This document shows, in pieces, positions 260-25,069 of a stretch of DNA of 42,624 nt. The notes below the pieces were generated by a model. That model saw only the letters and a list, made by a program, of their open reading frames with translations, ran no database searches and was not told the DNA's origin. A program made the position numbers and the translations under genes. Source of the DNA: Solirubrobacterales bacterium (lineage in GTDB: Bacteria; Actinomycetota; Thermoleophilia; Solirubrobacterales; Solirubrobacteraceae). Position 1 is the first letter of the stretch; every line of letters begins with the position of its first letter. The stretch lies in contig JAFAYV010000044.1 in assembly GCA_019240115.1 (NCBI GenBank), positions 1-42,624 of the forward strand, read 5' to 3'.

Positions 260-1738
260 TCAGCCGGCGGTCAGCACGAGCACCCAGTCGGTCCCGTGCC
301 CGGCGTTCTGGCCGGGCGGGACGAACTGGCGCCGGCCGGCGTTGCGCAGGCGGTCGGCGCTCGGCCGGTAGCGGCCGTCGGTCGGGTCATACCACTGGGC
401 GCGGGTCGGCCCGGCCATGCGCGACATGTCGACGATGATCGGCGCCCCCGAGGGGACGTAGGCGATCGCCAGACGCCCGTCGGGCGTGCGTGCGGCGGTG
501 ACGTACGTGCTGGCGTTCGTGTTCGCGGTGGGGTCGAAGGCGCCGTAGCCGCCGACGACGAGGCCATGGCGGATGTCGGGCACGAGTCGATACCACGGAC
601 GCCCGGCGAACAGCCGCGTGGCGAGCGCGAGCTGGCGCGTTCCCGCGGTCACGACGTGCTGTTGCCAGCCCTGCGCGAACGGCCAGATCCAGTGGTTGCC
701 GTAGAGCTGTCCGGTGGCGCCGGAGAGCAGCGTCCAGTACTCCTCGCGGCGCAGCGTCTCGGGTCCCGTGTACTGGTACTCGCCGTCGTAGCTGGCCTCG
801 ACCATGAACACCGGCAGGTGGTCGCGGCGCTCGTACTCGCCCAGCACCGCCGCGTAGGTGGTCTCAAACTCGAACGGATAGGCGGCGTCGAGCGAGATGA
901 GCGGGCGCCAGCGCGGGTCCGACAGCGAGCCGACGAGGTTGGGCGGGGACAGCTCGACCGTCTGGGGCGCCTGAGGGCTGACGCTGCGGATGCCGCGGGC
1001 GACCGCGAGCGCCGCCTCGTCGTCGGTGGGATCGGTCGCGTTGGCGAAGTCGTTGCCGCTTAGCCACACGATGTTCGTGAAGCGGCGGAAGCGAGTCGCG
1101 ACGTAGCGACCGTAGCGGTAGTCGGCGGCTCGGCCGTTGGCGCGCAGGACGTTCAGCCAGCCGCCCGTCTCGATCGGGTCGAGGAACACCGCGATGTGAT
1201 CACGCGCGGCCGCGGTGAGGATCTGCGCCGCGCGATCGAAGTACGCGGGGTTCGGCGTCGAGAGGTCTCCGGGCGTGCGGAAGGGCACGATGCCGTCGTA
1301 GGTCGCGCCGTTTGCCCGCCCCCCGGTGTAGCTGTCGTCGAGCAGCTCGATCCAGGCGGCGTTGAACCCCTGGCGCTCGCGCTCGGCGAGGAAGCCATCG
1401 GCATCGGCGACCGAGAGGTTGACGATCAGCGAGTGCGGCGAGTCGCCCACGATGAGAAACGGTCGCCCGCGCTGGTCGACGAGATAGCGGCGGTTCGCCG
1501 ACATCTTCAGCGGGAACGCCGGTCCCGCCGGGGCGGTCCGGGCGTGCGCGCGGGTGGCCGCGGCGCCCGCCCGCGCGGCCCGCGGGTGCGCCGGCGTCGA
1601 GGATGCGGTCACCGCGAGGACGATGACCGCGAGCACGGCGAGCGCGAGGACCGTGGCGACGCCCTGCACGCGCCCGTCGCGCAGCCACTCGCGCGGGTCG
1701 GTGCGTCGCACCAGCTCCCGCACCTCAGCCCCGCGCAC
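260..1738 (-). CDS. Membrane-anchored DUF4038 (apiosidase-like) glycoside hydrolase
   Basis: This 492-aa protein has a short cytoplasmic N-terminus, one transmembrane segment at about residues 27-46, then an Ala/Arg-rich linker. From about residue 76 it matches the DUF4038/apiosidase-like TIM barrel as I know it: FPLKMSANRRYLVDQRGRPF, then LIVGDSPHSL, with the family's FNAAWIELL strand soon after. The last ~90 residues (DIRHGLVVGGYGAFDP and beyond, with MSRMAGPTRAQWYDPTDGRY) resemble the C-terminal beta domain that often follows it (the putative collagen-binding domain of PF12904 type). The orientation implies the catalytic part faces outside. The start overlaps the upstream glycosyltransferase by 14 nt, so it is translated with the polysaccharide genes and probably trims or remodels their product. 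The substrate is unknown, and DUF4038 proteins are often annotated only as putative hydrolases. Confidence 0.8.
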   Translation of the reverse strand: MRGAEVRELVRRTDPREWLRDGRVQGVATVLALAVLAVIVLAVTASSTPAHPRAARAGAAATRAHARTAPAGPAFPLKMSANRRYLVDQRGRPFLIVGDSPHSLIVNLSVADADGFLAERERQGFNAAWIELLDDSYTGGRANGATYDGIVPFRTPGDLSTPNPAYFDRAAQILTAAARDHIAVFLDPIETGGWLNVLRANGRAADYRYGRYVATRFRRFTNIVWLSGNDFANATDPTDDEAALAVARGIRSVSPQAPQTVELSPPNLVGSLSDPRWRPLISLDAAYPFEFETTYAAVLGEYERRDHLPVFMVEASYDGEYQYTGPETLRREEYWTLLSGATGQLYGNHWIWPFAQGWQQHVVTAGTRQLALATRLFAGRPWYRLVPDIRHGLVVGGYGAFDPTANTNASTYVTAARTPDGRLAIAYVPSGAPIIVDMSRMAGPTRAQWYDPTDGRYRPSADRLRNAGRRQFVPPGQNAGHGTDWVLVLTAG

Positions 1739-12311: not shown

Positions 12312-14168
12312 ATGTGCGGCATCTGCGCTCATACCTGTGACCCCGCGGGCGACGCCGTCGCGCGCATGAACGCCGAGATCGTCCACCGGGGCCCCGACGA
12401 CGCCGGGGTCCACGTCGACCCGGGGTCCGGGGTCGCGCTCGGGGCGCGACGGCTGAGCATCATCGACCTCGCCGACGGCCACCAGCCGGTGATCAACGAG
12501 ACCGGGACGGTCGCCGGCGCGCTGAACGGCGAGATCTACAACTTCGAGAGCCTGCGCGAGGAGCTGCTGCGCGCCGGCCACCGGCTGCGCAGCCGCTGCG
12601 ACACCGAGGTGCTCGTCCATCTCTACGAGGAGCACGGGCCCGACATGGTCCACGCGCTCGAGGGCATGTACGCGTTCGTCATCTGGGACGCGCAGCGGCG
12701 CCGCCTGCTCGCCGCCCGCGACCGGTTCGGCGAGAAGCCGCTGTTCTACGTCGCCCGCGGGCGCGAGCTCGTCCTCGCCTCCGAGGCGACCGCGCTGACC
12801 CGCACCGGCCAGGCGTCATCGGCGGTGTCGGCGGCGGCGCTCGACGAGTACTTCGTACTCGGCTACGTCCAGGCGCCGCGGAGCATCTTCGCCGAGATCC
12901 GCCAGCTGCCGCCCGCGCACCTGCTGACCTGGAGCCAGGAGCGCCCGCATCCCTCGGTGACGCGCTACTGGTCGCCCCCGGCGCCGAGCGGCGAGCCGAC
13001 CGAGGAGCCGTTCGCCGAGCTCGTCGACGAGGCCGAGGAGCTGCTCGCGCGCTCGATGCGGGGACGCCTGCACGCCGACGTCCCGGTCGGCCTGTTCCTG
13101 TCCGGCGGCGTCGACTCCGCGCTCGTCGGGGCCTTCGCCGCCGATCAGATCTCGGGCACGCTGAAGACGTTCACCGTCGGTTACGACGTCGGCGGCACGA
13201 GCGAGGCGGTCCCCGCGCGAGCGCTCGCCGCGGCGCTGCACTCCGATCACCACGAGCTCGTCCTCACCGGGTCAGAGATGGCGGTCCGGGCACCGGCGAC
13301 GCTCGCCCGGCTCGATCAGCCGCTCGCCGACCAGGCCTTCGTGCCGCTGCACCTGCTGGCCGCCCAGGCGCGCCGGGAGGTCACCGTCGTGGTCGGGGGC
13401 GAGGGCTCGGACGAGCTCTTCGGCGGCTACCCGCGGGTGCGCTGGATGGACCTCGCCGGGCGGATGGCCCGGCGCCTGCCCGATTCGGCGCTGCGCAGCG
13501 TCGGCGCCGCCTCGCGGAGGCTGCCGGCCGGCGGCCGCGCCGGACGTTTCGCGCAGATGCTCGCGACCCGCTCGCTCGCCGAGCGCCATCTCGGCTGCGT
13601 GACCGCCGGGCGGCCCGGGACGCGGGCGAGCGTCTACGGGCCCGCGCTGGCGCCGCTCGCCGACTCCGATCTCGCGCGCGGCTGGGGGGTGGAGCAGGTC
13701 CCCGGCCGCCACGCCGCCGCCGACCTCATGCGGCTGGACCAGACGCGCTGGCTGCCCGACGACGTCCTGGCCAAGGCCGACCGCGCGACGATGCTGACCT
13801 CGCTCGAGATGCGCACGCCGTTCCTGCATCGCGAGCTCGGCGAGTTCGCCGCCTCGCTGCCCGCCGAGACCCATCTCGCCGACGACGGCAAGGCGATCGT
13901 GCGGGCGCTCGTGCGCCGCCGCATCGGCCCCGAGTTCGCCAAGCGGGCCAAGCGCCCGTTCGCGGTCCCGGTCGGCGACTGGCTGCGCGGGTCGCTCGGC
14001 GCGACGCTCGGCGAGCAGGTCGCCGGCAGCGCGCTGTACCGCGACGGCTGGTTCGCCGCCGAGCCGGTCGGGCGCCTGCTCGCCGCCCACCGGCGCGGCG
14101 AGGCCGACCATTCCGCGGTGCTGTGGCCGCTGTTCTCGCTCGGATGCTGGTGGGAGGCGCAGGAGTGA
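12312..14168 (+). CDS. asnB: Asparagine synthase (glutamine-hydrolysing)/AsnB-type amidotransferase
   Basis: The 618-aa protein begins at the ATG that leaves Cys2 (MCGICAH) as the N-terminal nucleophile of the class II glutaminase domain. Earlier in-frame TTG and GTG codons would bury it. Glutaminase motifs include RGPDDAG (26-32) and NGEIYNF (72-78). The C-terminal synthetase domain has the PP-loop SGGVDS (264-269) and VGGEGSDELFGGY. Length is usual for AsnB. In polysaccharide loci such enzymes often amidate uronic acids or other carboxyl groups of the glycan, which fits the coupling to two glycosyltransferase genes (GTGA overlap). A role in asparagine supply is the alternative. No strong ribosome binding site is visible before the ATG. 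Confidence 0.92.
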   Translation: MCGICAHTCDPAGDAVARMNAEIVHRGPDDAGVHVDPGSGVALGARRLSIIDLADGHQPVINETGTVAGALNGEIYNFESLREELLRAGHRLRSRCDTEVLVHLYEEHGPDMVHALEGMYAFVIWDAQRRRLLAARDRFGEKPLFYVARGRELVLASEATALTRTGQASSAVSAAALDEYFVLGYVQAPRSIFAEIRQLPPAHLLTWSQERPHPSVTRYWSPPAPSGEPTEEPFAELVDEAEELLARSMRGRLHADVPVGLFLSGGVDSALVGAFAADQISGTLKTFTVGYDVGGTSEAVPARALAAALHSDHHELVLTGSEMAVRAPATLARLDQPLADQAFVPLHLLAAQARREVTVVVGGEGSDELFGGYPRVRWMDLAGRMARRLPDSALRSVGAASRRLPAGGRAGRFAQMLATRSLAERHLGCVTAGRPGTRASVYGPALAPLADSDLARGWGVEQVPGRHAAADLMRLDQTRWLPDDVLAKADRATMLTSLEMRTPFLHRELGEFAASLPAETHLADDGKAIVRALVRRRIGPEFAKRAKRPFAVPVGDWLRGSLGATLGEQVAGSALYRDGWFAAEPVGRLLAAHRRGEADHSAVLWPLFSLGCWWEAQE

Positions 14169-15265: not shown

Positions 15266-16608
15266 GCCGCCGCGCGCGCGCCGGGCCGCCGGGGGTCGTG
15301 CTGCGCGCCGTGCCGGCCATGCCCGGTCCACCCATCCCGCCGACGCCGGACGCGCCGGCGCGCCGGCGTACGCTGCGCCTCGTGGGCGACCCGGCGAGCT
15401 CGGCGGCGCAGCGGCCCCTGAACGTCCTCTACGTCGACCACACCGGCCTCGTCGGCGGGGGCGAGCGCTCGCTGCTGGCGCTCCTCGAGGCCCTCCCGGC
15501 ACAGGCGCGGGCGCGCCTCGCCGCGCCCGCGGGTCCCCTCCAGGACCGCGCCCGCGAGCGTGGCGTTTGCGCCTGGACGATCGCCGAGTCCTCGGGAAGC
15601 CTGCGCCTGCACCCCGTGCACACCCCGCTCGCGCTCGGCGCGATGGCCGCGGCCGCCACCGGCGTGCTGCGCGCCGCGCGCGGCTGGCCCGCCGACGTGC
15701 TGCACGCCAACTCCATCCGGGCGGGGCTCATCGCCGCGCCGGTGGCCCGAGCCCTGCGTCTCCCGCTCGTCCTGCACGTCCGCGACTGCCTGCCGCCGTC
15801 GCCGCTGACCGAGCGTCTGCAGCGCGGGCTCGCCGCCAACGCGGCGGCGGTGATCGCGATCTCCCGCCACGTCGCCGCCACCTTCGACCCCGACGGCGTC
15901 GCGTCCCGCCTCACCGTCCTGCCCAACCCCTTCGACCTGACGCGGCTGGACCCCTCGCGCCTGACGCGCGCGGCGGCGCGCGAGCGCCTCGGGCTGCCGG
16001 CGGGCGCGCCCGTCCTCGGGCTCGTCGGCCAGATCACGCCGTGGAAGGGCCAGGAGGAGGCGATCCGCGCGCTCGCGCAGCTGCGCGCCGGCCATCCGCA
16101 GGCGCGACTGCTCATCGTCGGCGAGGCGAAGTTCGTGGCCAAGGCGACGCGGTTTGACAACCGCGCCTATCTCGACGGGCTGCACCGACTCGTCGAGGAG
16201 GTCGGCCTGGGCGACGCGGTCCGCTTCCTGGGCGAGCGGGAGGACATCCCCGAGGTCATGCGGGCGTGCGACGTGGCGCTCACGCCCTCGTGGGAGGAGC
16301 CGTTCGGCCGCGTCGTCGTCGAGGCGATGGCGATGGGGGTGCCGGTCGTGGCCACGGCGGCCGGGGGTCCGGCGGAGATCATCACCGACGGGCGCGACGG
16401 CCTGCTCGTGACCCCGCGGCGGCCCGACCTGCTCGCCGCCGCGATCGAACGCCTGCTCGACGATGCGGACCTTCGCGACGCGCTCGGGACCGCCGCGCGA
16501 CGGACCGCGAGCGGCTACGGCGCACAGCGCCACGTCGCCGGAGTCATGGGCGTTTACCGCTCCGTCGTGCGCTCCGAGCGGAAATTCGGCGCGACACCGT
16601 TCGTTTGA
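15262..16608 (+). CDS. Glycosyltransferase family 4 with N-terminal basic extension
   Basis: The 448-aa protein starts at the ATG overlapping the previous stop (ATGA). The first ~53 residues are Arg/Pro-rich and outside the fold. The GT-B domain begins at LNVLYVDHTGLVGGGERSLL. The donor half has LGLVGQITPWKGQEEAIRAL, RLLIVGEAKFV and the full E-x7-E motif in EEPFGRVVVEAMAMGVPVVA followed by GGPAEIITDGRDG. It resembles the minus-strand enzyme at 5517-6629. It is the last gene of the asnB group; an 81-nt spacer then leads to the cslA-like gene. Confidence 0.9.
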   Translation: MSRRARAGPPGVVLRAVPAMPGPPIPPTPDAPARRRTLRLVGDPASSAAQRPLNVLYVDHTGLVGGGERSLLALLEALPAQARARLAAPAGPLQDRARERGVCAWTIAESSGSLRLHPVHTPLALGAMAAAATGVLRAARGWPADVLHANSIRAGLIAAPVARALRLPLVLHVRDCLPPSPLTERLQRGLAANAAAVIAISRHVAATFDPDGVASRLTVLPNPFDLTRLDPSRLTRAAARERLGLPAGAPVLGLVGQITPWKGQEEAIRALAQLRAGHPQARLLIVGEAKFVAKATRFDNRAYLDGLHRLVEEVGLGDAVRFLGEREDIPEVMRACDVALTPSWEEPFGRVVVEAMAMGVPVVATAAGGPAEIITDGRDGLLVTPRRPDLLAAAIERLLDDADLRDALGTAARRTASGYGAQRHVAGVMGVYRSVVRSERKFGATPFV

Positions 16609-16639: not shown

Positions 16640-16855
16640 ATGAGTCGGGTTCGCCGCGCAGGATCGACCCCTCGAGCCCTTGTACGAGCATGTTGTCCGG
16701 CACCACAGATCAACCGCAACCCGCTCTCTCAGAACCGCCCGAGACCGCCCTCTTCCACGAGCTCGAGTTCGTCGAGCCGGGGATCTCCGCCGGCGAGCAG
16801 CCGCCCGCCCCCACGGAGATGCGGCTCTATGACTACGCGCGCTACAGCCAGCTGA
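16640..16855 (+). CDS. Short ORF with strong ribosome binding site, overlapping the cslA-like start
   Basis: A perfect AAGGAGG (16627-16633) stands 6 nt before the ATG at 16640, which opens a 71-codon frame (MSRVRRAGSTPRALVRAC...). This frame overlaps the first 55 codons of the synthase gene in another register. The synthase's own ATG at 16690 has no visible Shine-Dalgarno sequence. The peptide is basic and then Ser/Pro-rich, like an out-of-frame read of a GC-rich gene, so only the start region may matter, for example as a leader that delivers ribosomes to 16690. Real protein function is doubtful. Confidence 0.3.
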   Translation: MSRVRRAGSTPRALVRACCPAPQINRNPLSQNRPRPPSSTSSSSSSRGSPPASSRPPPRRCGSMTTRATAS

Positions 16856-18579
16856 CCGGTCCCCTGGTCAAGGCCGTCCCGGGCGACGCCGGCGTGCGCT
16901 ACCGGCGCCCGCCGGGCGTGCGGCCGGTCCGCCAGACGATCGGCGCGGCCTTCGTGCTCGTGCTGCAGAGCTGCTTCCTCGCCTGGCTGCTGCTCCCCGG
17001 CCACCTCCCCAAGCTCGGTCATCACATCTGGATCGCCGCCGGGTCGATCGTGATGGTCGGCTCGATCTATCTGATCGAGCTCTTTCGGCTGATCAACGTC
17101 GGCAGTCTCTGCGTCGCCTCCGCGCTCGCGCGCGATCCGGTCCCGATGGCGCCCGCGCCGGGCCTGCGGGTGGCGTTCCTGACGTCGATCGTGCCCTCCC
17201 GCGAGCCGATCGTGGTCGTCCGCCAGACGCTCGAGGCGGCCCGGCGGATCCGCCACGCCGGCGTCCTGGACATCTGGCTGCTCGACGAGGAGGACGACCC
17301 CATGGTGCGGGCGATGTGCGACGAGCTCGGCGTGCACCACTTCAGCCGCTTCGGGGTGCCCGAGTTCAACCGCGAAGCCGGCTGCTTCAAGGCCCGGACC
17401 AAGCACGGCAACTACAACTCCTGGGTCGCCGTCCACGGCCCCGAGTACGAGTTCTTCGTCTCGGTCGATCCCGACCACGTGCCGCTGCCGAGCTTCTGCG
17501 AGCGCCTGCTCGGCTACTTCCGCGACCCCGACGTCGCGTTCGTCGTCGGACCGCAGGTCTACGGCAACTACGACAACTTCGTCACCAAGGGCGCCGAGTC
17601 CCAGCAGTTCGTCTTCCACGGGCTCATCCAGCGCCTCGGCAACCGCTTCCGGAGCCCGATGCTCGTCGGCACCAACAACGCGGTGCGGATCTCGGCGCTC
17701 GAGCAGGTCGGGGGCCTGCGCGACAGCATCACCGAGGACCTTGCCACGAGCCTGGCGTTTCACTCGAGCATCAACGCCGAGACCGCGAACAACTGGGTCT
17801 CGGTGTACACCCCCGACGTCCTCTCGGTCGGCGAGGGCCCGAGCAACTTCACCGACTTCTTCAGCCAGCAGCACCGCTGGGCGCGCGGCACCTTCGAGAA
17901 CTTCCGCGGGCATCTGTGGCGCAGCATGCGCGGGCTGCGGATGGGCCCGCGGCTGCACTACTCGCTAATCACCTCCTACTACCCGTCGGCCGCGATCGGC
18001 TGGATCCTCGGCGGCGTCAACGCGGTCATCTACCTGACGATGGGCGCGAGCGGGCTGAAGGTCCCCGCGCACGTGTGGGTCGCGGTCTACGTCGATCTCG
18101 CCGCGGTCCAGTTCTGCCTGTACGCGTCGAACCGCAAGCACAACGTCTCTCCGCACGAGCTGCCCGGATCATCGGGCGCCATAGGCATGTTCATGTCGGT
18201 GCTCGCCGCGCCGATCTACGTCGTCGCGCTCGTGGGAACGATGCTGCGGCGCAAGCAGGGCTTCGTCGTGACCCCGAAGGGCACCTACGCCTCGGCCGAC
18301 ACGATCGCCACGTTTCGCGTGCACCTGGCATGGGGCGCGCTGGTCGCGGCCGCGCTCGTCGTCTCGCTGTGGCTGGACCGGCCCGTGGCGACGATGCGCT
18401 GGTGGTCGCTGACCCTCGTCTGCCTCTGCTTGACGCCGTACGCGATCTCGCTCTACGAGCGGGCGAGGAACCACAGGCTGCTGCGCGCCGAGGCGATCCC
18501 GCCCGGCGCCAAGGCACGGATCGCCAACACCGTCGCCGCCGAGCACGCGGGCGGCATGACCCAGACGGAGGCAGCATGA
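16690..18579 (+). CDS. cslA: Cellulose-synthase-like GT2 membrane glycosyltransferase (CslA-type)
   Basis: This is a 629-aa processive GT2. A ~80-residue N-terminus precedes two TM helices (about 84-102 and 113-136). The GT-A domain follows with D199 in LLDEEDD, the DxD motif DPD (260-262), TED (348-350) and QQHRW (393-397). These are the four signatures of cellulose/hyaluronan/chitin-type synthases. Five further TM helices lie in the C-terminal third. The downstream gene overlaps by ATGA and encodes a GlxA-like oxidase. Known precedent: Streptomyces CslA and GlxA are adjacent and together make a beta-glucan-like polymer at the cell surface. The same role is inferred here. The polymer could be beta-1,4-glucan or another beta-glycan. 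No PilZ domain is visible. Confidence 0.88.
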   Translation: MLSGTTDQPQPALSEPPETALFHELEFVEPGISAGEQPPAPTEMRLYDYARYSQLTGPLVKAVPGDAGVRYRRPPGVRPVRQTIGAAFVLVLQSCFLAWLLLPGHLPKLGHHIWIAAGSIVMVGSIYLIELFRLINVGSLCVASALARDPVPMAPAPGLRVAFLTSIVPSREPIVVVRQTLEAARRIRHAGVLDIWLLDEEDDPMVRAMCDELGVHHFSRFGVPEFNREAGCFKARTKHGNYNSWVAVHGPEYEFFVSVDPDHVPLPSFCERLLGYFRDPDVAFVVGPQVYGNYDNFVTKGAESQQFVFHGLIQRLGNRFRSPMLVGTNNAVRISALEQVGGLRDSITEDLATSLAFHSSINAETANNWVSVYTPDVLSVGEGPSNFTDFFSQQHRWARGTFENFRGHLWRSMRGLRMGPRLHYSLITSYYPSAAIGWILGGVNAVIYLTMGASGLKVPAHVWVAVYVDLAAVQFCLYASNRKHNVSPHELPGSSGAIGMFMSVLAAPIYVVALVGTMLRRKQGFVVTPKGTYASADTIATFRVHLAWGALVAAALVVSLWLDRPVATMRWWSLTLVCLCLTPYAISLYERARNHRLLRAEAIPPGAKARIANTVAAEHAGGMTQTEAA

Positions 18580-20528
18580 CCGCCCAGAGACAGCGAACCC
18601 GCGTTCGACGCACCCAAGCCTTCGTCGGGTTGCTGGTGCTCGTCGCGCTGGTCGTCGTCAACGGCCCGCCGCTCGTCGGCTTCGGCAAGCACGAGTACCA
18701 CCAGTGGCAGATCACCCGCCTCTCCTACAAGGAGAAGTACGGATACTGGGCCAACCTCCCGATTCCCAGCGGGAAGCGGGTCAACGCGATCCACTCGATC
18801 CTGCTGAACACCGGCAAGGTGCTGATCATGGCCGGGTCGGGCAACGACGTCGGCAACTTCGCGGCCGGGAAGTTCGAGTCGGTCGTGTACAACCCGGCGA
18901 ACAACACCTTCAAGAAGATCAAGACCCCCTCGGACCTGTTCTGCTCGGGACACGTGATCCTGCCCGACGGCAAGGTCCTGATCGCCGGCGGCACGACCCG
19001 GTACGAGGTCCTGGCCAACCAGATCCGCTACGCCGCCGGGGTGATGACGATCGTCAACCGCAGCACCACGAACTCGCTGCGCTTGGCGGAGGGGACGACC
19101 TTCCGCGCGACCTCGGGCCAGCTCTACTGGGCCACCGCGGCGGTCGACGTCCCGCCCGCCCGCGCGGGCACCGTGCTGCGCGGCGCCCGGCGCATCGCGG
19201 TCACCAACCCGAGCTACACGCCGCTGTGGGTCAAGGCCGAGAAGACCGGCAACGCCCCGATCGTCAACCAGGCGCAGAACTTCGCGATCCCGAGCCTCTC
19301 GGGAGCGCAGAGCGCGGGACTGCAGGCGAGCTCGTTCAGCATCACGCGCAACCAGCAGAACTTCTGGGGCAGCCGCAAGTCCTACATCTTCAACCCGGAG
19401 ACCGAGACCTACCAGAAGGTCTCGGACCTGAACATCGCGCGCTGGTATCCGACGCTCGTCGGCCTCGCCGACGGCAAGGTGCTCGCGGTCTCGGGCCTCG
19501 ACGGGTTCGGCAACATCATCCCGGGCCAGTCGGAGATCTTCGATCCCAAGACGAACCGCTGGACGATGAAGCGCAATCTGACCAAGTCGTTCCCGACCTA
19601 CCCGGCGCTGTTCCTGATGCCCAACGGGGACCTGTTCTTCACCGGCGCGAGCGCCGGCTACGGGCCGGACACCCAGGCCTGGCGCACCCCGGGCATCTGG
19701 AACCCGTTCACGAACCGCTTCCAGCCCGTCGGCAAGGGGATGCGCGCCCCCAACGAGCTCGAGACCGCCGGCAGCCTGCTGCTGCCGCCCGCCCAGGACC
19801 AGCGCTACGCGGTCATCGGCGGCGGGGGCGTCGGCCAGTCGCCGCTGTCGACCGGCCGCATCGACGTCGTCGACCTGCGGCAGCGCAACCCAGTGTGGAA
19901 GCCCGAAGGCAGCCTGCCCGTCGGCACCCGGTACCCCGAGCTCGTGATCACTCCCAACGACGGGCTGGTCATCTCGGGCGGCTCGAAGGGCTATCGTGGA
20001 CTCCACGGGTCCGACCTGCTCGAGTGCCACCTGTTCGAGCCCTCGACCGGCAAGCTGTCAACGCTCGCGTCGCCGCTCGTCGGACGCGATTATCACTCCG
20101 AGGCGCTGCTGCTCCCCGACGGTCGCATCCTGACCATGGGCGGCAACCCGCTGTTCGGCAACAAGCAGGACACCAAGCCTGAGGTGTTCCGTCAGAAGAT
20201 GACGATCTTCTATCCGCCATACTTGTTCCACGGCAAGCGCCCGCAGCTCACCGGGGGACCGACCCAGCTGGGGCGCGGACAGACCGGCGTGTTCACCACC
20301 CCCGACCCCGACGCGATCGTCAAGGCCCGGCTCATCCACCCGAGCGCGGTCACCCACGTCACCGACGTCCAGCAGCGGTCGATCGCGCTGACGATCCATC
20401 GCAATGCGGGCTCGGTGTCACTGACCGTCCCGGAGGGGGCGGGTCTCGTCCCGTCGGGCTGGTACATGGTGTTCGTCGACAACCGCATCGGCGTGCCCTC
20501 GGTCGCGCGCTGGGTGCACGTCGGCTGA
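18576..20528 (+). CDS. glxA: GlxA-like copper-radical (galactose-oxidase-family) protein
   Basis: The 650-aa protein has one N-terminal membrane segment (about 15-31), so it is an anchored extracellular enzyme. A Kelch-type beta-propeller is followed by a C-terminal DUF1929 beta domain (from about 540). By alignment to galactose oxidase from memory, all active-site residues are present: Cys123 (LFCSGH) for the Tyr-Cys cofactor, Tyr291 (ARWYPT), Tyr506-His507 (GRDYHS) and His594 (SAVTHV). The family oxidises a primary alcohol or aldehyde with O2, giving H2O2. Streptomyces GlxA is needed with CslA for glycan deposition. Translational coupling to the synthase (ATGA) supports the same partnership. 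Natural substrate unknown. Confidence 0.9.
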   Translation: MTAQRQRTRVRRTQAFVGLLVLVALVVVNGPPLVGFGKHEYHQWQITRLSYKEKYGYWANLPIPSGKRVNAIHSILLNTGKVLIMAGSGNDVGNFAAGKFESVVYNPANNTFKKIKTPSDLFCSGHVILPDGKVLIAGGTTRYEVLANQIRYAAGVMTIVNRSTTNSLRLAEGTTFRATSGQLYWATAAVDVPPARAGTVLRGARRIAVTNPSYTPLWVKAEKTGNAPIVNQAQNFAIPSLSGAQSAGLQASSFSITRNQQNFWGSRKSYIFNPETETYQKVSDLNIARWYPTLVGLADGKVLAVSGLDGFGNIIPGQSEIFDPKTNRWTMKRNLTKSFPTYPALFLMPNGDLFFTGASAGYGPDTQAWRTPGIWNPFTNRFQPVGKGMRAPNELETAGSLLLPPAQDQRYAVIGGGGVGQSPLSTGRIDVVDLRQRNPVWKPEGSLPVGTRYPELVITPNDGLVISGGSKGYRGLHGSDLLECHLFEPSTGKLSTLASPLVGRDYHSEALLLPDGRILTMGGNPLFGNKQDTKPEVFRQKMTIFYPPYLFHGKRPQLTGGPTQLGRGQTGVFTTPDPDAIVKARLIHPSAVTHVTDVQQRSIALTIHRNAGSVSLTVPEGAGLVPSGWYMVFVDNRIGVPSVARWVHVG

Positions 20529-20538
20529 CCCGGGGCGG

Positions 20539-21555
20539 GTGGCGCGGATGTCGCGACTTCGCGCAGCCGGTCTGTTGGCGCTCGTGCTCGCGCTCGTGGC
20601 GGCGGGCTGCGGGTCCAGTGCGCACGGCGATCCGCGGCCGAGCCCTTCGCGGCGCAGCGATCCGCTCGCGGGGCTGCGGCTGTACGTCGTCCCGTCGGCG
20701 CCGGCCGTCGCGCAGGCCCGGATCTGGCAGGCCGCCGGCCGCCGTCGCGACGCCGTCGCGATCGAGCGGATCGCGAGCCAGCCGACGGCGACGTGGCTGA
20801 CCGGCTCGCGGTCGGATGCGGGCACCGCCCGCGGGCTCGCCGCTGCGGCAGCGCGCGCCGGCCGGATCCCGCTGCTGACGCTGTACGACATCCCCAACCG
20901 CGACTGTCACGGGTACTCGTCGGGCGGCGCGAGGAGCTCGTCCGCGTACCTGGGGTGGGTGGCGAGCATCGCCAACGCGATCGGCGATCGCGGGGCGATC
21001 GTCATCCTCGAGCCCGATGCCATCGATCAGGCGACCGGCGGCTGTCACGACCGCGCGGCGGCGATGGCCACGTTCCGGCTGCTCGGGCACGCCGTGGGGA
21101 CGCTGAAGAGCCGGGCGGGCGGGCATATCCACGTCTACATCGACGCCGGCAACTCCGGCTGGCAGTCGGTCAACGCGATCGCGGGGCCGCTGCTGACCGC
21201 GGACGTGCGCCAGGCCGATGGCTTCGCGCTCAACGTCGCCAACTTCCAGACAACCCAGGCCTCGATCGCCTACGGGACGGCGCTGTCGCGCCTGGTCGGC
21301 GGCAAGCACTTCGTCATCGACACGGGCCGCAACGGCGCCGGGCCCGCGTCGGGAGGAATGCAGTCGTGGTGCAATCCGACGGGACGCGCCCTCGGCCAGG
21401 CGCCGACGACCGACCCGGGCACCCCGCTCGTCGACGCGCTGCTGTGGGTCAAGTACCCCGGCGAGTCCGATGGCAGCTGCGGACGCGGCGATCCGTCGGC
21501 CGGGCAGTGGTGGCCCGGCTATGCGCTCGGGCTCGCCGAGCGCACCGCGGGATGA
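20539..21555 (+). CDS. GH6 family glycoside hydrolase, probable lipoprotein (CslZ-like)
   Basis: Starting at GTG 20539 gives 338 aa; the ATG at 20548 is an equally good start. The N-terminus is a lipoprotein signal with LVAAGC (Cys24). The rest is a GH6 catalytic domain: YDIPNRDC (Asp122 corresponds to the assisting Asp), ILEPDAID (Asp160, the general acid position), YIDAGNSGW (Asp202) and WVKYPGESDG (Asp311). Family knowledge: GH6 enzymes are inverting beta-1,4-glucanases or cellobiohydrolases. It lies 10 nt after glxA, as a GH6 gene does beside Streptomyces cslA-glxA, so it probably trims the polymer made by the synthase. Its 3' end overlaps the convergent GH6 gene by 37 nt. Confidence 0.9.
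   Translation: MARMSRLRAAGLLALVLALVAAGCGSSAHGDPRPSPSRRSDPLAGLRLYVVPSAPAVAQARIWQAAGRRRDAVAIERIASQPTATWLTGSRSDAGTARGLAAAAARAGRIPLLTLYDIPNRDCHGYSSGGARSSSAYLGWVASIANAIGDRGAIVILEPDAIDQATGGCHDRAAAMATFRLLGHAVGTLKSRAGGHIHVYIDAGNSGWQSVNAIAGPLLTADVRQADGFALNVANFQTTQASIAYGTALSRLVGGKHFVIDTGRNGAGPASGGMQSWCNPTGRALGQAPTTDPGTPLVDALLWVKYPGESDGSCGRGDPSAGQWWPGYALGLAERTAG
21214..21344 (+). repeat. Inverted repeat arm 1 inside the plus-strand GH6 gene
   Basis: These 131 bp match 21832-21962 on the opposite strand with 8 mismatches by hand count (about 94%). Long runs are identical even at synonymous sites. They encode the DGFALNVANFQTTQASIAYG block and the GGKHFVIDTGRNGAG block of GH6. Confidence 0.85.
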
Positions 21556-22649
21556 CCGCTCGCCGCCGACTGACCGCCCGCCGCCGCGGCGGGGTGGCCG
21601 CTCGCCGCCGCGGTCGCCGGGGTGTGGTCGACGAGGCCGAGGGCGTATTGCGGCCACCAGACGCCCGCCGGCGGATCGCCGAGGCTGCAGGCGCCGTCGG
21701 ACTCCCCCGGATACTTCACCCATAGGAAGCCGTCGACGAGCGGCACTCCGGTGTGCAGCGTCGGAGCGCTGCCGAGCGCGCGCCCGCGCGGATTGCACCA
21801 CTGATCGACCCCCCCGCCGCTCCCGGGCGGCGGCCCGGCGCCGTTGCGGCCCGTGTCGATGACGAAGTGCTTGCCGCCGAGCTCGCGCGAGAGCTCGGTC
21901 CCGTAGGCGATCGAGGCCTGGGTTGTCTGGAAGTTGGCGACGTTGAGCGCGAACCCGTCGGCCTGGGCGATCCCGGATTGCAGCAGCGGCTCGTCGAGCT
22001 GCGCGGGCGAGAGCCAGCCGGCGTGTCCGGCATCGAGGTAGACGCGCGCGCGAGGGTCGGACTTCAGTCGCGTCACCGCCGCCGCCAGCAGCTGGTAGCG
22101 CGCCAGCGCCTGATCGGGGGAGATGCAGCCGGAGGCGGCCTGGTCGATCGCGTCGGGTTCGACCACGACGATCACGCGACGGGTGCCGAGGCCCTGCGCG
22201 ACCTGGTCGATCCAGCGCTCGTATTCGCCGGCGCTTCGAGCTCCGCCCGCCGAGTAGCTCTGGCAGTCGCGGTCGGGGATGTCGTAGAGGACGAGCTGGG
22301 CGATGCCGTTGGCCTGGGCGGCGGCCGCCACCAGGCGCGCGGCGGCGGCACGCGGCGACTCGTTGCCCGTCAGCCACACGGCGGTCGGCTGCACCGCGAT
22401 CCGCAGAACCGCCCGGGCGTCGCGGGCGTCGCCCGTCGCCCGCCACACGCGCGCCTGGGACAGCGCCGGCGTGTCCGGGTTGACGTACAGGCCGCCCGAC
22501 GCGGGCGGAACCGAGATGGCGGCGGCCTGACGTGGGGCGCGGTGCGAGGCGATGCTCGTCCGGCTCGCGTCGCGCCCGCAGCCGGAGATCGCGGCGCCGG
22601 AGATCGCGATGAGGAGCAGCACAACGATGGAGAGAGTGCGGCCACGCAT
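21519..22649 (-). CDS. Second GH6 family glycoside hydrolase, lipoprotein
   Basis: The 376-aa protein has a signal peptide ending in a canonical lipobox ISGC (Cys24). GH6 motifs are YDIPDRDC (Asp128), VVEPDAID (Asp166), YLDAGHAGW (Asp206) and WVKYPGESDG (Asp318), all acidic residues intact. A ~32-residue Ala/Gly/His-rich tail follows the domain. GAGGTG lies 6 nt before the ATG. It is convergent with, and close in sequence to, the GH6 gene at 20539-21555, suggesting inverted duplication or gene conversion. Reading along the minus strand it follows the sigma factor and LuxR genes after a 41-nt gap, so it may be under their control while its twin follows glxA. It is probably a surface beta-glucanase. 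Confidence 0.9.
   Translation of the reverse strand: MRGRTLSIVVLLLIAISGAAISGCGRDASRTSIASHRAPRQAAAISVPPASGGLYVNPDTPALSQARVWRATGDARDARAVLRIAVQPTAVWLTGNESPRAAAARLVAAAAQANGIAQLVLYDIPDRDCQSYSAGGARSAGEYERWIDQVAQGLGTRRVIVVVEPDAIDQAASGCISPDQALARYQLLAAAVTRLKSDPRARVYLDAGHAGWLSPAQLDEPLLQSGIAQADGFALNVANFQTTQASIAYGTELSRELGGKHFVIDTGRNGAGPPPGSGGGVDQWCNPRGRALGSAPTLHTGVPLVDGFLWVKYPGESDGACSLGDPPAGVWWPQYALGLVDHTPATAAASGHPAAAAGGQSAASGHPAVRSASPSA
21832..21962 (-). repeat. Inverted repeat arm 2 inside the minus-strand GH6 gene
   Basis: This is the partner of 21214-21344. The arms are separated by 487 bp, so a single-stranded molecule could form a long hairpin. The flanks diverge outside these 131 bp. Confidence 0.85.
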
Positions 22650-22690: not shown

Positions 22691-23368
22691 TCAGGCGGCG
22701 GAGCGCGCCTTGCGCACGGGGGCGCGCCCCGCGCGCGTGGCCACCGGTGCCAGCGCGGCCGCGAGCAGCCGCTCGTCGGGATCGAGCATCAGCGCGGTGG
22801 CCTCCCGGCGCGAGCGCACGCCGAGCTTGTCGAAGGCGGTGACGAGATGGCCCTTGATCGTGCTCTCGGCCAGGTGCAGGCGGCTCGCGATCTCGCGGTT
22901 GGAGAGCCCCGCGGCGACGAGCGCCAGCGCTTGCTTCTCGCGCTGGGAGAAGCTCGGTCGCGCGACGAGGCGAACGCGCTCGCGGGGGACGCAGACGAGC
23001 CCGGCCGCAGCGGCGAGGACCGCCGGGACGAGCGCGGCCCCGATCTGCGCCGTGGGCACGAAGCCGGCGGCTCCGGCGTCGATCGTCTGGCGCGGCAGGC
23101 CCCCGCCGCGGTCCTCGGCGACCGCCACGACCGCCGAGCCCCGCAGCGTCCGGCGCAGCATCCGCAGCGTCTGCAGCCCGTCGGCGGGTGCGGCGAAGGC
23201 GGCGAGCACGACGACCTCGACGCCCTTGCCGACCAGCTCCTCTCCCGCGTGGTCAGACCGCACGCCCGCCACGGGCGGCAGCCCTCCGTCCATGAGCGCC
23301 CGCGTCAGCGCCGCCACGTCGGCGGCGTCGTCGTGCAGGACGCCGACGCGCATGTCGGGCAGCTTCAC
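22691..23368 (-). CDS. LuxR-family regulator with degenerate receiver domain
   Basis: The 225-aa protein has an N-terminal domain (about 6-125) with the pattern of a response-regulator receiver: GVLHDD, a central VEVVVLAAF strand and an AGAAGFVP loop. The phospho-acceptor Asp expected at the end of the VVVL strand is Ala. The C-terminal LuxR/NarL helix-turn-helix (about 139-195) is intact: FSQREKQALALVAAGLSNRE, then STIKGHLVTAFDKLGV. It starts in the stop of the sigma gene (ATGA) and is probably co-transcribed with it. The regulator may respond to ligand or protein partners rather than phosphorylation. Possible targets are the GH6 and cslA genes next to it. Confidence 0.85.
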   Translation of the reverse strand: MKLPDMRVGVLHDDAADVAALTRALMDGGLPPVAGVRSDHAGEELVGKGVEVVVLAAFAAPADGLQTLRMLRRTLRGSAVVAVAEDRGGGLPRQTIDAGAAGFVPTAQIGAALVPAVLAAAAGLVCVPRERVRLVARPSFSQREKQALALVAAGLSNREIASRLHLAESTIKGHLVTAFDKLGVRSRREATALMLDPDERLLAAALAPVATRAGRAPVRKARSAA

Positions 23369-24000
23369 GTCGCCGCGTGCCGGCTCGAGCCCTTCGTGAA
23401 GGGGCTCGACTCCAGCCGGACGAGCTCGTCGCGCAGCGCGCGGCGCCCGCGATGGTGCAGTCCGTGGATCGACCCCTCCGAGCGGCCCATGCGCTCGGCG
23501 ATCTCGGCGGGCGACAACCCGTAGACGTGGCGCAGGATGATGACCTCGCGCTGCTCCTCGGTCAGCGTTCCCAGCGCGTCGCGCACCGTCTGAGGACGGT
23601 CGAGGTCGGCGCCGCAGCTCTGATCGGGATCGAACAGCGTCTCCACCGGCGTCGCGCGGCGCGCGCGGAGGTGGTCGATCGCCAGGTTGCGGGCCATGCG
23701 CAGCAGCCAGGCGAAGAACGGCACGCCGCGATCGTCGTACTTGTTGATCGCGGTCATCAGCTTGGTGAACACGAGCTGGGTGACGTCCTCGGCCTCGTGC
23801 TCATCCTGGAGGATCGAGCGGACGTAGCCGAAGACGTTCGACGAATAGCTGACGTAGAGGTAGCGCAGCGCCTGCTGGTCGCCCTGCTTGGCGGCCGCGA
23901 CGGCGAGCCGGGTCTTGGAGAGCGTCTCCGGCGACTCGTCCAGGCTCGTCCCGGACTTGAAGCCGATGGTGCTCGGCACAGCGGTGAACGGACTCAACAT
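23365..24000 (-). CDS. ECF-like sigma-70 family RNA polymerase sigma factor
   Basis: The 211-aa protein has region 2 at about 44-113 (DEHEAEDVTQLVFTKL and FFAWLLRMARNLAIDHLRAR) and region 4 at about 140-193 (LTEEQREVIILRHVYGLSPA, then IAERMGRSEGSIHGLHHRGR). Regions 1 and 3 are absent, as in group 4 (ECF) factors. A ~35-residue N-terminal extension precedes region 2. AAGGGG lies 7 nt before the ATG. No anti-sigma gene is adjacent; instead a LuxR-type gene overlaps its stop. It heads a minus-strand unit that ends with a GH6 gene, so control of glycan remodelling is a plausible but unproved role. Confidence 0.9.
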   Translation of the reverse strand: MLSPFTAVPSTIGFKSGTSLDESPETLSKTRLAVAAAKQGDQQALRYLYVSYSSNVFGYVRSILQDEHEAEDVTQLVFTKLMTAINKYDDRGVPFFAWLLRMARNLAIDHLRARRATPVETLFDPDQSCGADLDRPQTVRDALGTLTEEQREVIILRHVYGLSPAEIAERMGRSEGSIHGLHHRGRRALRDELVRLESSPFTKGSSRHAAT

Positions 24001-24331
24001 GAAATGCCCCTTGTCTTGAATGCGCTCGCCGCGAGTCGCGTCATCCGTCCCCGAGCGCCCTCCTGGCGTCGAGTGACTCTGCTGCCGCTTTGAGCCCCCA
24101 TGAGCGAGAACTGCGCCCCCGCTCTGCTTGCACGACGAGTATCCGGGCGGTCCCGAAGCCGGTCAATGACCGGTCAGGCGCATTGCTCCGTTCACTCTTC
24201 TGAACGCCGCATGGCCCTTCGGTCACGACTTGTGCTTCCTTTCTGCACGTGCGGCAGCGAAAAAGTGCGCACAGCGGCCGTTAATCAGATATGTCGGCGC
24301 ACACGACCGAATCACGACCTGGAGCGATGCG
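24001..24331. promoter_or_regulatory. Divergent spacer between sigma operon and LuxR gene
   Basis: No convincing gene lies in these 331 bp, which are less GC-rich than their surroundings. A 7-1-7 inverted repeat CCGGTCAATGACCGG is at 24159-24173, and the half-site CCGGTCA recurs directly at 24170-24176. An 8-bp palindrome GTGCGCAC and an AT-rich patch (TTAATCAGATATG) lie 40-75 bp before the plus-strand gene. These are candidate operator and promoter elements. Confidence 0.45.
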
Positions 24332-25069
24332 ATGAGTTCTCACATCGACGGAGCGTCCGATGGAGGGAGCCTGATGCGGGTGCCCGGCGGCGGGCCGAAC
24401 GTCGATCCCGCGCCCGCCCGGGCCGTCTCCGGGCTGCGGCTGCTCGTCGCCGACAACGCGCCGACGCGCCTCGGGATCCGGATGGCGCTCGCCGACACGC
24501 TGACGATCTGCGCCGAGGCCGGCTCGGGCGAGCTGGCGATCCGCGCCGCGATGCGCGAGCAGCCCGACGTGTGCCTCGTCGGCCGCGAGATGCTCGGTTC
24601 GGGCTTGGGGCTGCTGCGCGGGATCTGCCGCTCGGCGCCCGACTGCGCGGTCGTCGTGCTCGCCGCCGAGCAGGTCGCCGAGGACATGCTCGAGGCGTTC
24701 CGCGCGGGGGCGATCGGCTACGTTCCGGGCGCGCTGAGCGCGGAGCGGCTCCAGCTCGTCATGCGGGCGGTCGCCCACCACGAGGCGATCGTCCCGCGCT
24801 CGATGACGCTCGATCTGCTAGCGGCGCTGCGCGACGAGGGCACCGAGAGCTCGCTGCTGACCATCCGCGAGGCCGAGGTGCTGAAGATGCTGCGCCGCGG
24901 CCACACGACGTCGGCGATCGCGGCGCGCCTGCAGATCGCGCCGGTGACCGTGCGACGCCACATCTCCGAGCTCGTGTCCAAGCTCGGCGTCGCCGACCGC
25001 TTCGCGCTGATCAGCTCGGGGCCGCCACCGCGGTACCAGCCGCCGCCGGCGCGCCGCAACGGCCAGTAG
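24332..25069 (+). CDS. LuxR-family regulator with degenerate receiver domain
   Basis: From the ATG at 24332 the protein has 245 aa. A second in-frame ATG at 24374 has an even better GGAGGGAG site and would give 231 aa. The receiver-like domain runs from about residue 35 (LRLLVADNAPTRLGIRMAL), but the acceptor Asp is replaced by Gly84 (DVCLVGREM). The acidic pair after the first strand is reduced to one Asp. The C-terminal HTH (about 174-228) is intact, with LTIREAEVLKMLRRGHTTSA and VTVRRHISELVSKLGV. The gene diverges from the sigma operon and converges on the next regulator with a 2-nt gap. It is likely a phosphorylation-independent transcription factor. Confidence 0.85.
   Translation: MSSHIDGASDGGSLMRVPGGGPNVDPAPARAVSGLRLLVADNAPTRLGIRMALADTLTICAEAGSGELAIRAAMREQPDVCLVGREMLGSGLGLLRGICRSAPDCAVVVLAAEQVAEDMLEAFRAGAIGYVPGALSAERLQLVMRAVAHHEAIVPRSMTLDLLAALRDEGTESSLLTIREAEVLKMLRRGHTTSAIAARLQIAPVTVRRHISELVSKLGVADRFALISSGPPPRYQPPPARRNGQ

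What the first reader, a model, noticed from the sequence alone, without database searches (positions are those of the whole stretch)
16690..22649. CslA-GlxA-GH6 glycan synthesis module next to a Wzx/Wzy-type polysaccharide locus
A processive GT2 synthase with D/DxD/TED/QxxRW motifs is coupled by ATGA to a copper-radical oxidase with all galactose-oxidase ligands. Two GH6 lipoproteins follow. This mirrors the Streptomyces cslA-glxA-GH6 locus, known for hyphal-tip glycan. Its presence here, with a duplicated hydrolase and beside a full polysaccharide operon, suggests an oxidised beta-glycan made outside the classical hyphal context. The two loci may act on one envelope structure.
Basis: partly seen in the sequence, partly recalled or inferred. 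Interest (0 to 1): 0.75.

Follow-up and report, generated by a model that had tools for sequence, protein, structure and literature searches.

The report
Streptomyces-type cellulose synthase module, Solirubrobacterales
A soil bacterium outside the branching, mould-like actinomycetes carries the same three-gene kit (a cellulose synthase, its copper-enzyme partner and a cellulose-trimming enzyme) that Streptomyces uses at its growing tips, with the trimming gene doubled and one helper enzyme missing, so the kit may do something other than tip growth there.

Summary
cslA (16690-18579, +) and glxA (18576-20528, +) overlap by ATGA. Two GH6 lipoprotein genes follow, but only the first (20539-21555, +) runs with them; the second (21519-22649) is on the minus strand and converges, overlapping the first by 37 bp. 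CslA is 49-55% identical to CslAs of Streptomyces-type, Frankia and Amycolatopsis loci and under 30% to BcsA-type synthases. GlxA passes the NCBI equivalog cut-off (806.6 against 800), keeps all copper ligands, and its model matches S. lividans GlxA (4UNM) best. The nearest named relatives are Solirubrobacterales MAGs. In 399 genomes of the class, full-length GlxA and CslA occur in the same six and nowhere else; all six also hold CslZ-type GH6 at the cslA locus.

So this is a real CslA-GlxA-CslZ cellulose system, sister to that of Streptomyces. It differs: no AA10 LPMO (LpmP) and no SsgA-like proteins in any class carrier, no DtpA-like gene, and a doubled GH6 split between the cslA-glxA unit and a sigma-factor unit. 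The link to the neighbouring Wzx/Wzy locus is not supported: that adjacency is absent in the other carriers examined. Product, oxidation and non-hyphal role remain inferences.

The parts
16690..18579 (+). cslA: processive GT2 cellulose synthase-like membrane protein, 629 aa
   Evidence: 49-55% identity to CslA of Streptomyces-type, Frankia and Amycolatopsis loci, 67% to G016; D, DxD+H, TED, QxxRW, FxVTxK motifs; best fold match BcsA
18576..20528 (+). glxA: membrane-anchored copper radical oxidase (AA5-like), 650 aa, partner of CslA
   Evidence: NCBIfam NF052501 806.6 bits, cut-off 800; 4UNM 581 bits and best fold match; Cys123/Tyr143/Trp290/Tyr506/His507/His594 conserved; one N-terminal TM segment 16-34
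20539..21555 (+). GH6a: CslZ-type GH6 lipoprotein, co-directional third gene of the cslA-glxA unit (10-bp gap; start GTG 20539 or ATG 20548)
   Evidence: PF01341 206 bits; catalytic Asp motif RDC, EPDA, lipobox AAGC
21519..22649 (-). GH6b: second CslZ-type GH6 lipoprotein, convergent with GH6a; positional equivalent of Streptomyces cslZ and of the single GH6 in G016
   Evidence: PF01341 222 bits; 54% identical to GH6a; tree joins GH6a, GH6b and G016 GH6 (99/98)
22691..23368 (-). LuxR-type (GerE) regulator between sigma factor and GH6b
   Evidence: PF00196 58 bits; 4-bp overlap with sigma gene, 41 bp to GH6b; no match beside the module in G016
23365..24000 (-). ECF-type sigma factor upstream of GH6b
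   Evidence: PF04542/PF08281; a 70% identical sigma sits directly upstream of the single GH6 in G016
24230..25069 (+). response regulator (receiver + GerE), divergent from the sigma factor; kept at the same place in G016
   Evidence: 57% identity in G016

Best explanation
It is a CslA-GlxA-CslZ cellulose-synthesis module of the Streptomyces kind in a Solirubrobacterales-like bacterium. CslA polymerises UDP-glucose into a beta-1,4-glucan and passes it through the membrane; GlxA, held by one N-terminal helix, forms the complex that makes CslA active and may also use its copper radical on the emerging chain; GH6 lipoproteins on the outer face of the membrane trim the chain and open a path through the peptidoglycan. 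With no LpmP found in the genome, the doubled GH6 is proposed to carry the passage step alone, one copy made with the synthase (GH6a) and one under a local sigma factor (GH6b). Shown here: gene identity, motifs, coupling, co-inheritance, absence of AA10 LPMO matches. Inferred from S. lividans/S. coelicolor work: cellulose as product, complex formation, passage role. Speculative: division of labour of the two GH6, non-tip location.
For: Identity and motifs of all four proteins. ATGA coupling in window and G016. Perfect co-occurrence of full-length GlxA and CslA in 399 class genomes, 6 with both, 393 with neither (Fisher p 2e-13, an overstatement because genomes are related), with CslZ-type GH6 beside cslA in all six. 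Same cluster in Frankia, Amycolatopsis and Streptomyces-type genomes. GlxA and CslA trees place the class carriers beside, not inside, the Streptomyces clade. AA10 LPMO not found in six carriers of the class and present in three Streptomyces-type controls, in two of them beside cslA. Function from PMC11022532 (complex makes cellulose in vitro), PMC9040799 (CslZ and LpmP needed for deposition), PMC4736821 (C121 needed for the cross-link). GGDEF proteins present (27 in the window's genome), so c-di-GMP is plausible.
Against: No biochemical data for this protein. GlxA is close to its family cut-off (806.6 vs 800) and G211's is below it (752.6). The RxxxR motif that S. lividans CslA is said to keep from PilZ is not found near the C-terminus, so c-di-GMP control may differ. 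Sugar specificity cannot be read from a GT2 sequence with certainty. The genome is a 99-contig assembly (95.6% complete), so single absences carry some risk; the absence of LPMO in six carriers reduces it.
Confidence: 0.85

Rival explanations
1. CslA here is a synthase for another beta-glycan (glucomannan, mixed-linkage or galactose-containing polymer) and GlxA acts mainly as an alcohol oxidase on that polymer, giving an oxidised glycan.
For: CslA is only about 27% identical to BcsA-type synthases and about equally close to other alphaproteobacterial GT2 synthases; GlxA keeps an intact copper site; the S. lividans authors leave mixed sugars open (PMC11022532).
Against: Homologues at 49-55% identity include the S. 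lividans type shown to make cellulose in vitro; GH6 enzymes cleave beta-1,4-glucans; BcsA is the best fold match.
Confidence: 0.25
2. The cslA-glxA-GH6 genes and the Wzx/Wzy polysaccharide locus form one envelope-building island.
For: Direct adjacency in the window: the last GT4 gene ends at 16608 and cslA starts at 16690, on the same strand.
Against: None of the window's EPS genes is found beside the module in G016 (whole 38.6-kb contig), G052, G372 or G211, while the sigma factor and response regulator on the other side are kept in G016.
Confidence: 0.08
3. The GH6 enzymes are secreted cellulases for feeding on plant cellulose and only happen to lie next to the synthase.
For: GH6 is a classical cellulase family, and the genome holds other GH6 genes (six matches).
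Against: Both are short lipoproteins without a binding module; all six class carriers hold this type beside cslA, and the non-carriers tested hold only distant GH6; their closest tree neighbour is the cslA-linked GH6 of G016.
Confidence: 0.07
4. The module is a recent transfer from Streptomyces.
For: Patchy distribution, 6 of 399 class genomes.
Against: GlxA and CslA of the class form lineages outside the Streptomyces clade; identity to Streptomyces-type GlxA is only 42-47%; third-position GC (0.946) equals that of neighbouring genes.
Confidence: 0.05

Closest known systems
cslA-glxA-cslZ cluster of Streptomyces lividans / S. coelicolor (SCO2836-2838)
   Same: Same three gene families, cslA-glxA translational coupling, GH6 lipoprotein convergent on the operon (here GH6b), intact copper site.
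   Different: Extra co-directional GH6a; no LpmP (AA10 LPMO) match in the genome; no SsgA-like proteins; a local ECF sigma factor heads the GH6b unit; GlxA and CslA only 42-55% identical.
cslA-glxA-GH6 loci of Frankia and Amycolatopsis (loci L142-L144)
   Same: Same genes; GH6 co-directional with cslA-glxA, as GH6a here.
   Different: No convergent GH6b with a sigma factor seen in those stretches; hosts are mycelial actinomycetes (own knowledge).
bcsA-bcsB-bcsZ cellulose operons of Gram-negative bacteria
   Same: Synthase, essential membrane-anchored partner and endoglucanase; CslA shares fold and catalytic motifs with BcsA.
   Different: GlxA has no homology to BcsB (PMC11022532); GH6 in place of BcsZ; no outer-membrane channel; CslA about 27% identical to BcsA.
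Galactose oxidase and other AA5 copper radical oxidases
   Same: Fold and copper ligands.
   Different: About 18% identity; the GlxA-specific beta-barrel domain (PF21110) is present here.

Membership tests
GlxA radical copper oxidase (NF052501) | Score over the curated equivalog cut-off | tested here: met
   806.6 against 800 bits over residues 4-649
GlxA radical copper oxidase (NF052501) | Cross-linking Cys (S. lividans Cys121) and Tyr, the Tyr/His/His ligands and the stacking Trp288 | tested here: met
   Cys123, Tyr143, Tyr506, His507, His594, Trp290; invariant in 13 sequences; Cys121 role from PMC4736821; assignment of the other ligands by alignment with galactose oxidase is own knowledge
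GlxA radical copper oxidase (NF052501) | Tyr-Cys geometry at the copper site | not testable with these tools
   Model aligns to 4UNM at TM 0.77/0.82, but coordinates could not be measured
CslA cellulose synthase | DxD with adjacent His, TED, QxxRW and FxVTxK gating loop | tested here: met
   motif list from PMC11022532
CslA cellulose synthase | Groups with CslA rather than with BcsA, PgaC/IcaA or NodC | tested here: met
   49-55% identity inside the CslA set, under 30% outside; tree, with long outgroup branches
CslA cellulose synthase | Partial PilZ motif RxxxR (reported for S. lividans CslA) | tested here: inconclusive
   RxxxR only at 315 and 417, none near the C-terminus; the motif is short, its position in S. 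lividans was not available, and it is not a curated requirement
CslZ GH6 lipoprotein | GH6 domain, catalytic Asp in RDC, lipobox, no carbohydrate-binding module | tested here: met
   for both GH6a and GH6b; Asp120 role from PMC9040799
Streptomyces cslA cluster | LpmP-type AA10 LPMO | tested here: not met
   No PF03067 match in six class carriers; present in three Streptomyces-type controls
Streptomyces cslA cluster | Tat-exported DtpA (DyP) linked to sco, for GlxA maturation | tested here: not met
   Sco present in all 13 genomes; the one DyP of the window's genome has no Tat-like N-terminus and is on another contig than Sco; G016, G052 and G100 have no DyP
CslA-GlxA complex | Makes cellulose from UDP-glucose | not testable with these tools
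   Needs biochemistry

The most novel reading that the evidence does not exclude
A CslA-GlxA cellulose system working in non-mycelial bacteria, without LPMO or Streptomyces morphogenes, in which a pair of GH6 lipoproteins under separate control replaces the LpmP-CslZ pair and the glucan serves as a general cell-surface or biofilm layer, not as a hyphal-tip sheath.
Probability: 0.45. Interest if true: 0.6.

Novelty: new member of a known kind. Interest (0 to 1): 0.42.

Why it matters
CslA-GlxA is so far studied as a Streptomyces hyphal-tip machine, and earlier work placed glxA in Streptomyces plus Frankia and its link to an endoglucanase in Streptomyces alone (PMC3543389). Finding the whole module, co-inherited, in a class outside the mycelial actinomycetes suggests that it is older or more mobile than its hyphal role, and offers natural variants without LpmP and DtpA that can test which parts are essential.

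Tried and rejected
First named-genome scan with GlxA alone found no relative; a short alignment of class-specific stretches then worked. Looked for LPMO, DyP, Sco, SsgA and GGDEF families as context: Sco and GGDEF are everywhere and say little. Low GC of glxA (67.7% against about 75% in the EPS genes) as a sign of transfer was rejected: third-position GC equals that of neighbours, and tuf and fusA are as low. One-island hypothesis with the EPS locus rejected on synteny. Hyaluronan/PNAG synthase grouping rejected. Literature searches for GlxA with Thermoleophilia or for Solirubrobacterales with cellulose synthase and galactose oxidase gave nothing; one naming cslA, glxA and Frankia gave two papers.

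Full report
What is there. The window is a whole 42.6-kb contig (G000:C15) of a 4.03-Mb, 99-contig genome. cslA (16690-18579) and glxA (18576-20528) are on the plus strand and overlap by ATGA. GH6a (20539-21555, plus) starts 10 bp after glxA. GH6b is preceded on its own strand by a LuxR-type regulator (22691-23368) and an ECF-type sigma factor (23365-24000); LuxR and GH6b are 41 bp apart and sigma and LuxR overlap by 4 bp, so sigma-LuxR-GH6b looks like one unit.

Identity of the proteins. GlxA reaches 806.6 bits against the NCBIfam equivalog RdCuOxGlxASco2837, cut-off 800, carries the GlxA beta-barrel domain PF21110 and the GO-like E-set domain, and matches S. lividans GlxA 4UNM at 581 bits by sequence. 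The predicted structure (pLDDT 84.7) finds 4UNM first, at 44% identity and TM 0.77/0.82. Cys123, Tyr143, Trp290, Tyr506, His507 and His594 are invariant in 13 sequences; the Cys corresponds to Cys121, which is needed for the cross-link in S. lividans (PMC4736821). CslA has the motifs listed for S. lividans CslA (DxD with His, TED, QxxRW, FxVTxK; PMC11022532), is 49-55% identical to CslA of Streptomyces-type, Frankia and Amycolatopsis loci, and its model finds BcsA before any hyaluronan or chitin synthase. E. coli PgaC, IcaA, NodC, BcsA and two other GT2 synthases fall outside the CslA set in a tree, with long branches that make their order unsure. Both GH6 proteins keep the RDC catalytic Asp and a lipobox.

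Who else has it. In 399 genomes of the class, full-length GlxA was found in G000, G016, G052, G372, G100 and G211 (a seventh match, G173, covers only model positions 260-644) and CslA in the same six. All six hold a CslZ-type GH6 at the cslA locus, while the four non-carriers tested hold only distant GH6. So the earlier statement that linkage with an endoglucanase is confined to Streptomyces (PMC3543389) no longer holds; a 2022 study already showed the cluster in further filamentous actinobacteria (PMC9040799).

History. The GlxA tree keeps the class carriers together (90/94) beside the Streptomyces clade (93/99). Window and G016 are a firm pair in both trees. The CslA tree places G211 and G100 differently, which is unexplained. 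GH6a and GH6b are 54% identical and join G016's single GH6 (99/98), the a-b pair itself weakly (85/59). Since G016 has one GH6 convergent on glxA and directly after the sigma factor, GH6b is most simply the positional original and GH6a an old extra copy placed behind glxA. G052 and G372 also have two GH6, the second from another branch, so doubling happened more than once.

What differs from Streptomyces. No AA10 LPMO match exists in any of the six class carriers, against 3-6 in three Streptomyces-type genomes, in two of which one copy lies beside cslA. SsgA-like proteins are absent likewise. The single DyP peroxidase in G000 has no Tat-like signal and lies on another contig; three carriers have none. 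Sco is present everywhere. GGDEF proteins are plentiful, but the RxxxR remnant of PilZ reported for S. lividans CslA was not found near the C-terminus here.

Mechanism. From S. [quoted passage not shown] By homology the same core is expected here. Because LpmP is missing, I propose that GH6 alone serves the passage, one copy being made with the synthase and the other under the local sigma factor. That division is speculation.

The neighbouring EPS locus. Wzx-, Wzy- and Wzc-like genes, several GT4 and an AsnB-type amidotransferase fill about 3-16.6 kb. None has a match beside the module in G016 (whole contig), G052, G372 or G211. The adjacency is local to this genome as far as tested, and a shared structure is not supported.

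Limits. All class genomes are treated as drawn; many are incomplete MAGs, and absence in one genome is weak. No morphology is known for these organisms; cultured Solirubrobacterales are described as rods (own knowledge, not tested). Copper-site geometry was not measured.

Noticed in passing
window 22691-24000 (-), 24230-25069 (+): ECF-type sigma factor, overlapping LuxR-type gene and divergent response regulator next to GH6b; sigma and response regulator are kept at the same place in G016, the LuxR gene is not.
   Followed up: partly
G000:C63:27867-28604 (locus L148): A third CslZ-type GH6 (212 bits) in the same genome, away from the module.
   Followed up: partly
L031 (G052:C6), about 12386-12844: A cslA fragment with an internal TGA beside the intact cslA, and a second GH6; sign of a decayed second module copy.
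   Followed up: no
L059 (G372:C38) and L058: G372 holds two glxA genes; the second lies at a contig end with no cslA visible.
   Followed up: no
window 260-1738 (-): Apiosidase-like glycoside hydrolase (PF13204) with a C-terminal PF12904 domain and an N-terminal hydrophobic segment, at the edge of the EPS locus.
   Followed up: no
L156, Streptomyces sp. NBC_01431 linear plasmid: A full-length glxA homologue (43%) on a plasmid with no annotated cslA beside it and a transposase nearby, so glxA can be mobile and separate from cslA.
   Followed up: partly
CslA and GlxA trees: G211 and G100 change places between the two trees; mosaic transfer or long-branch effect.
   Followed up: no
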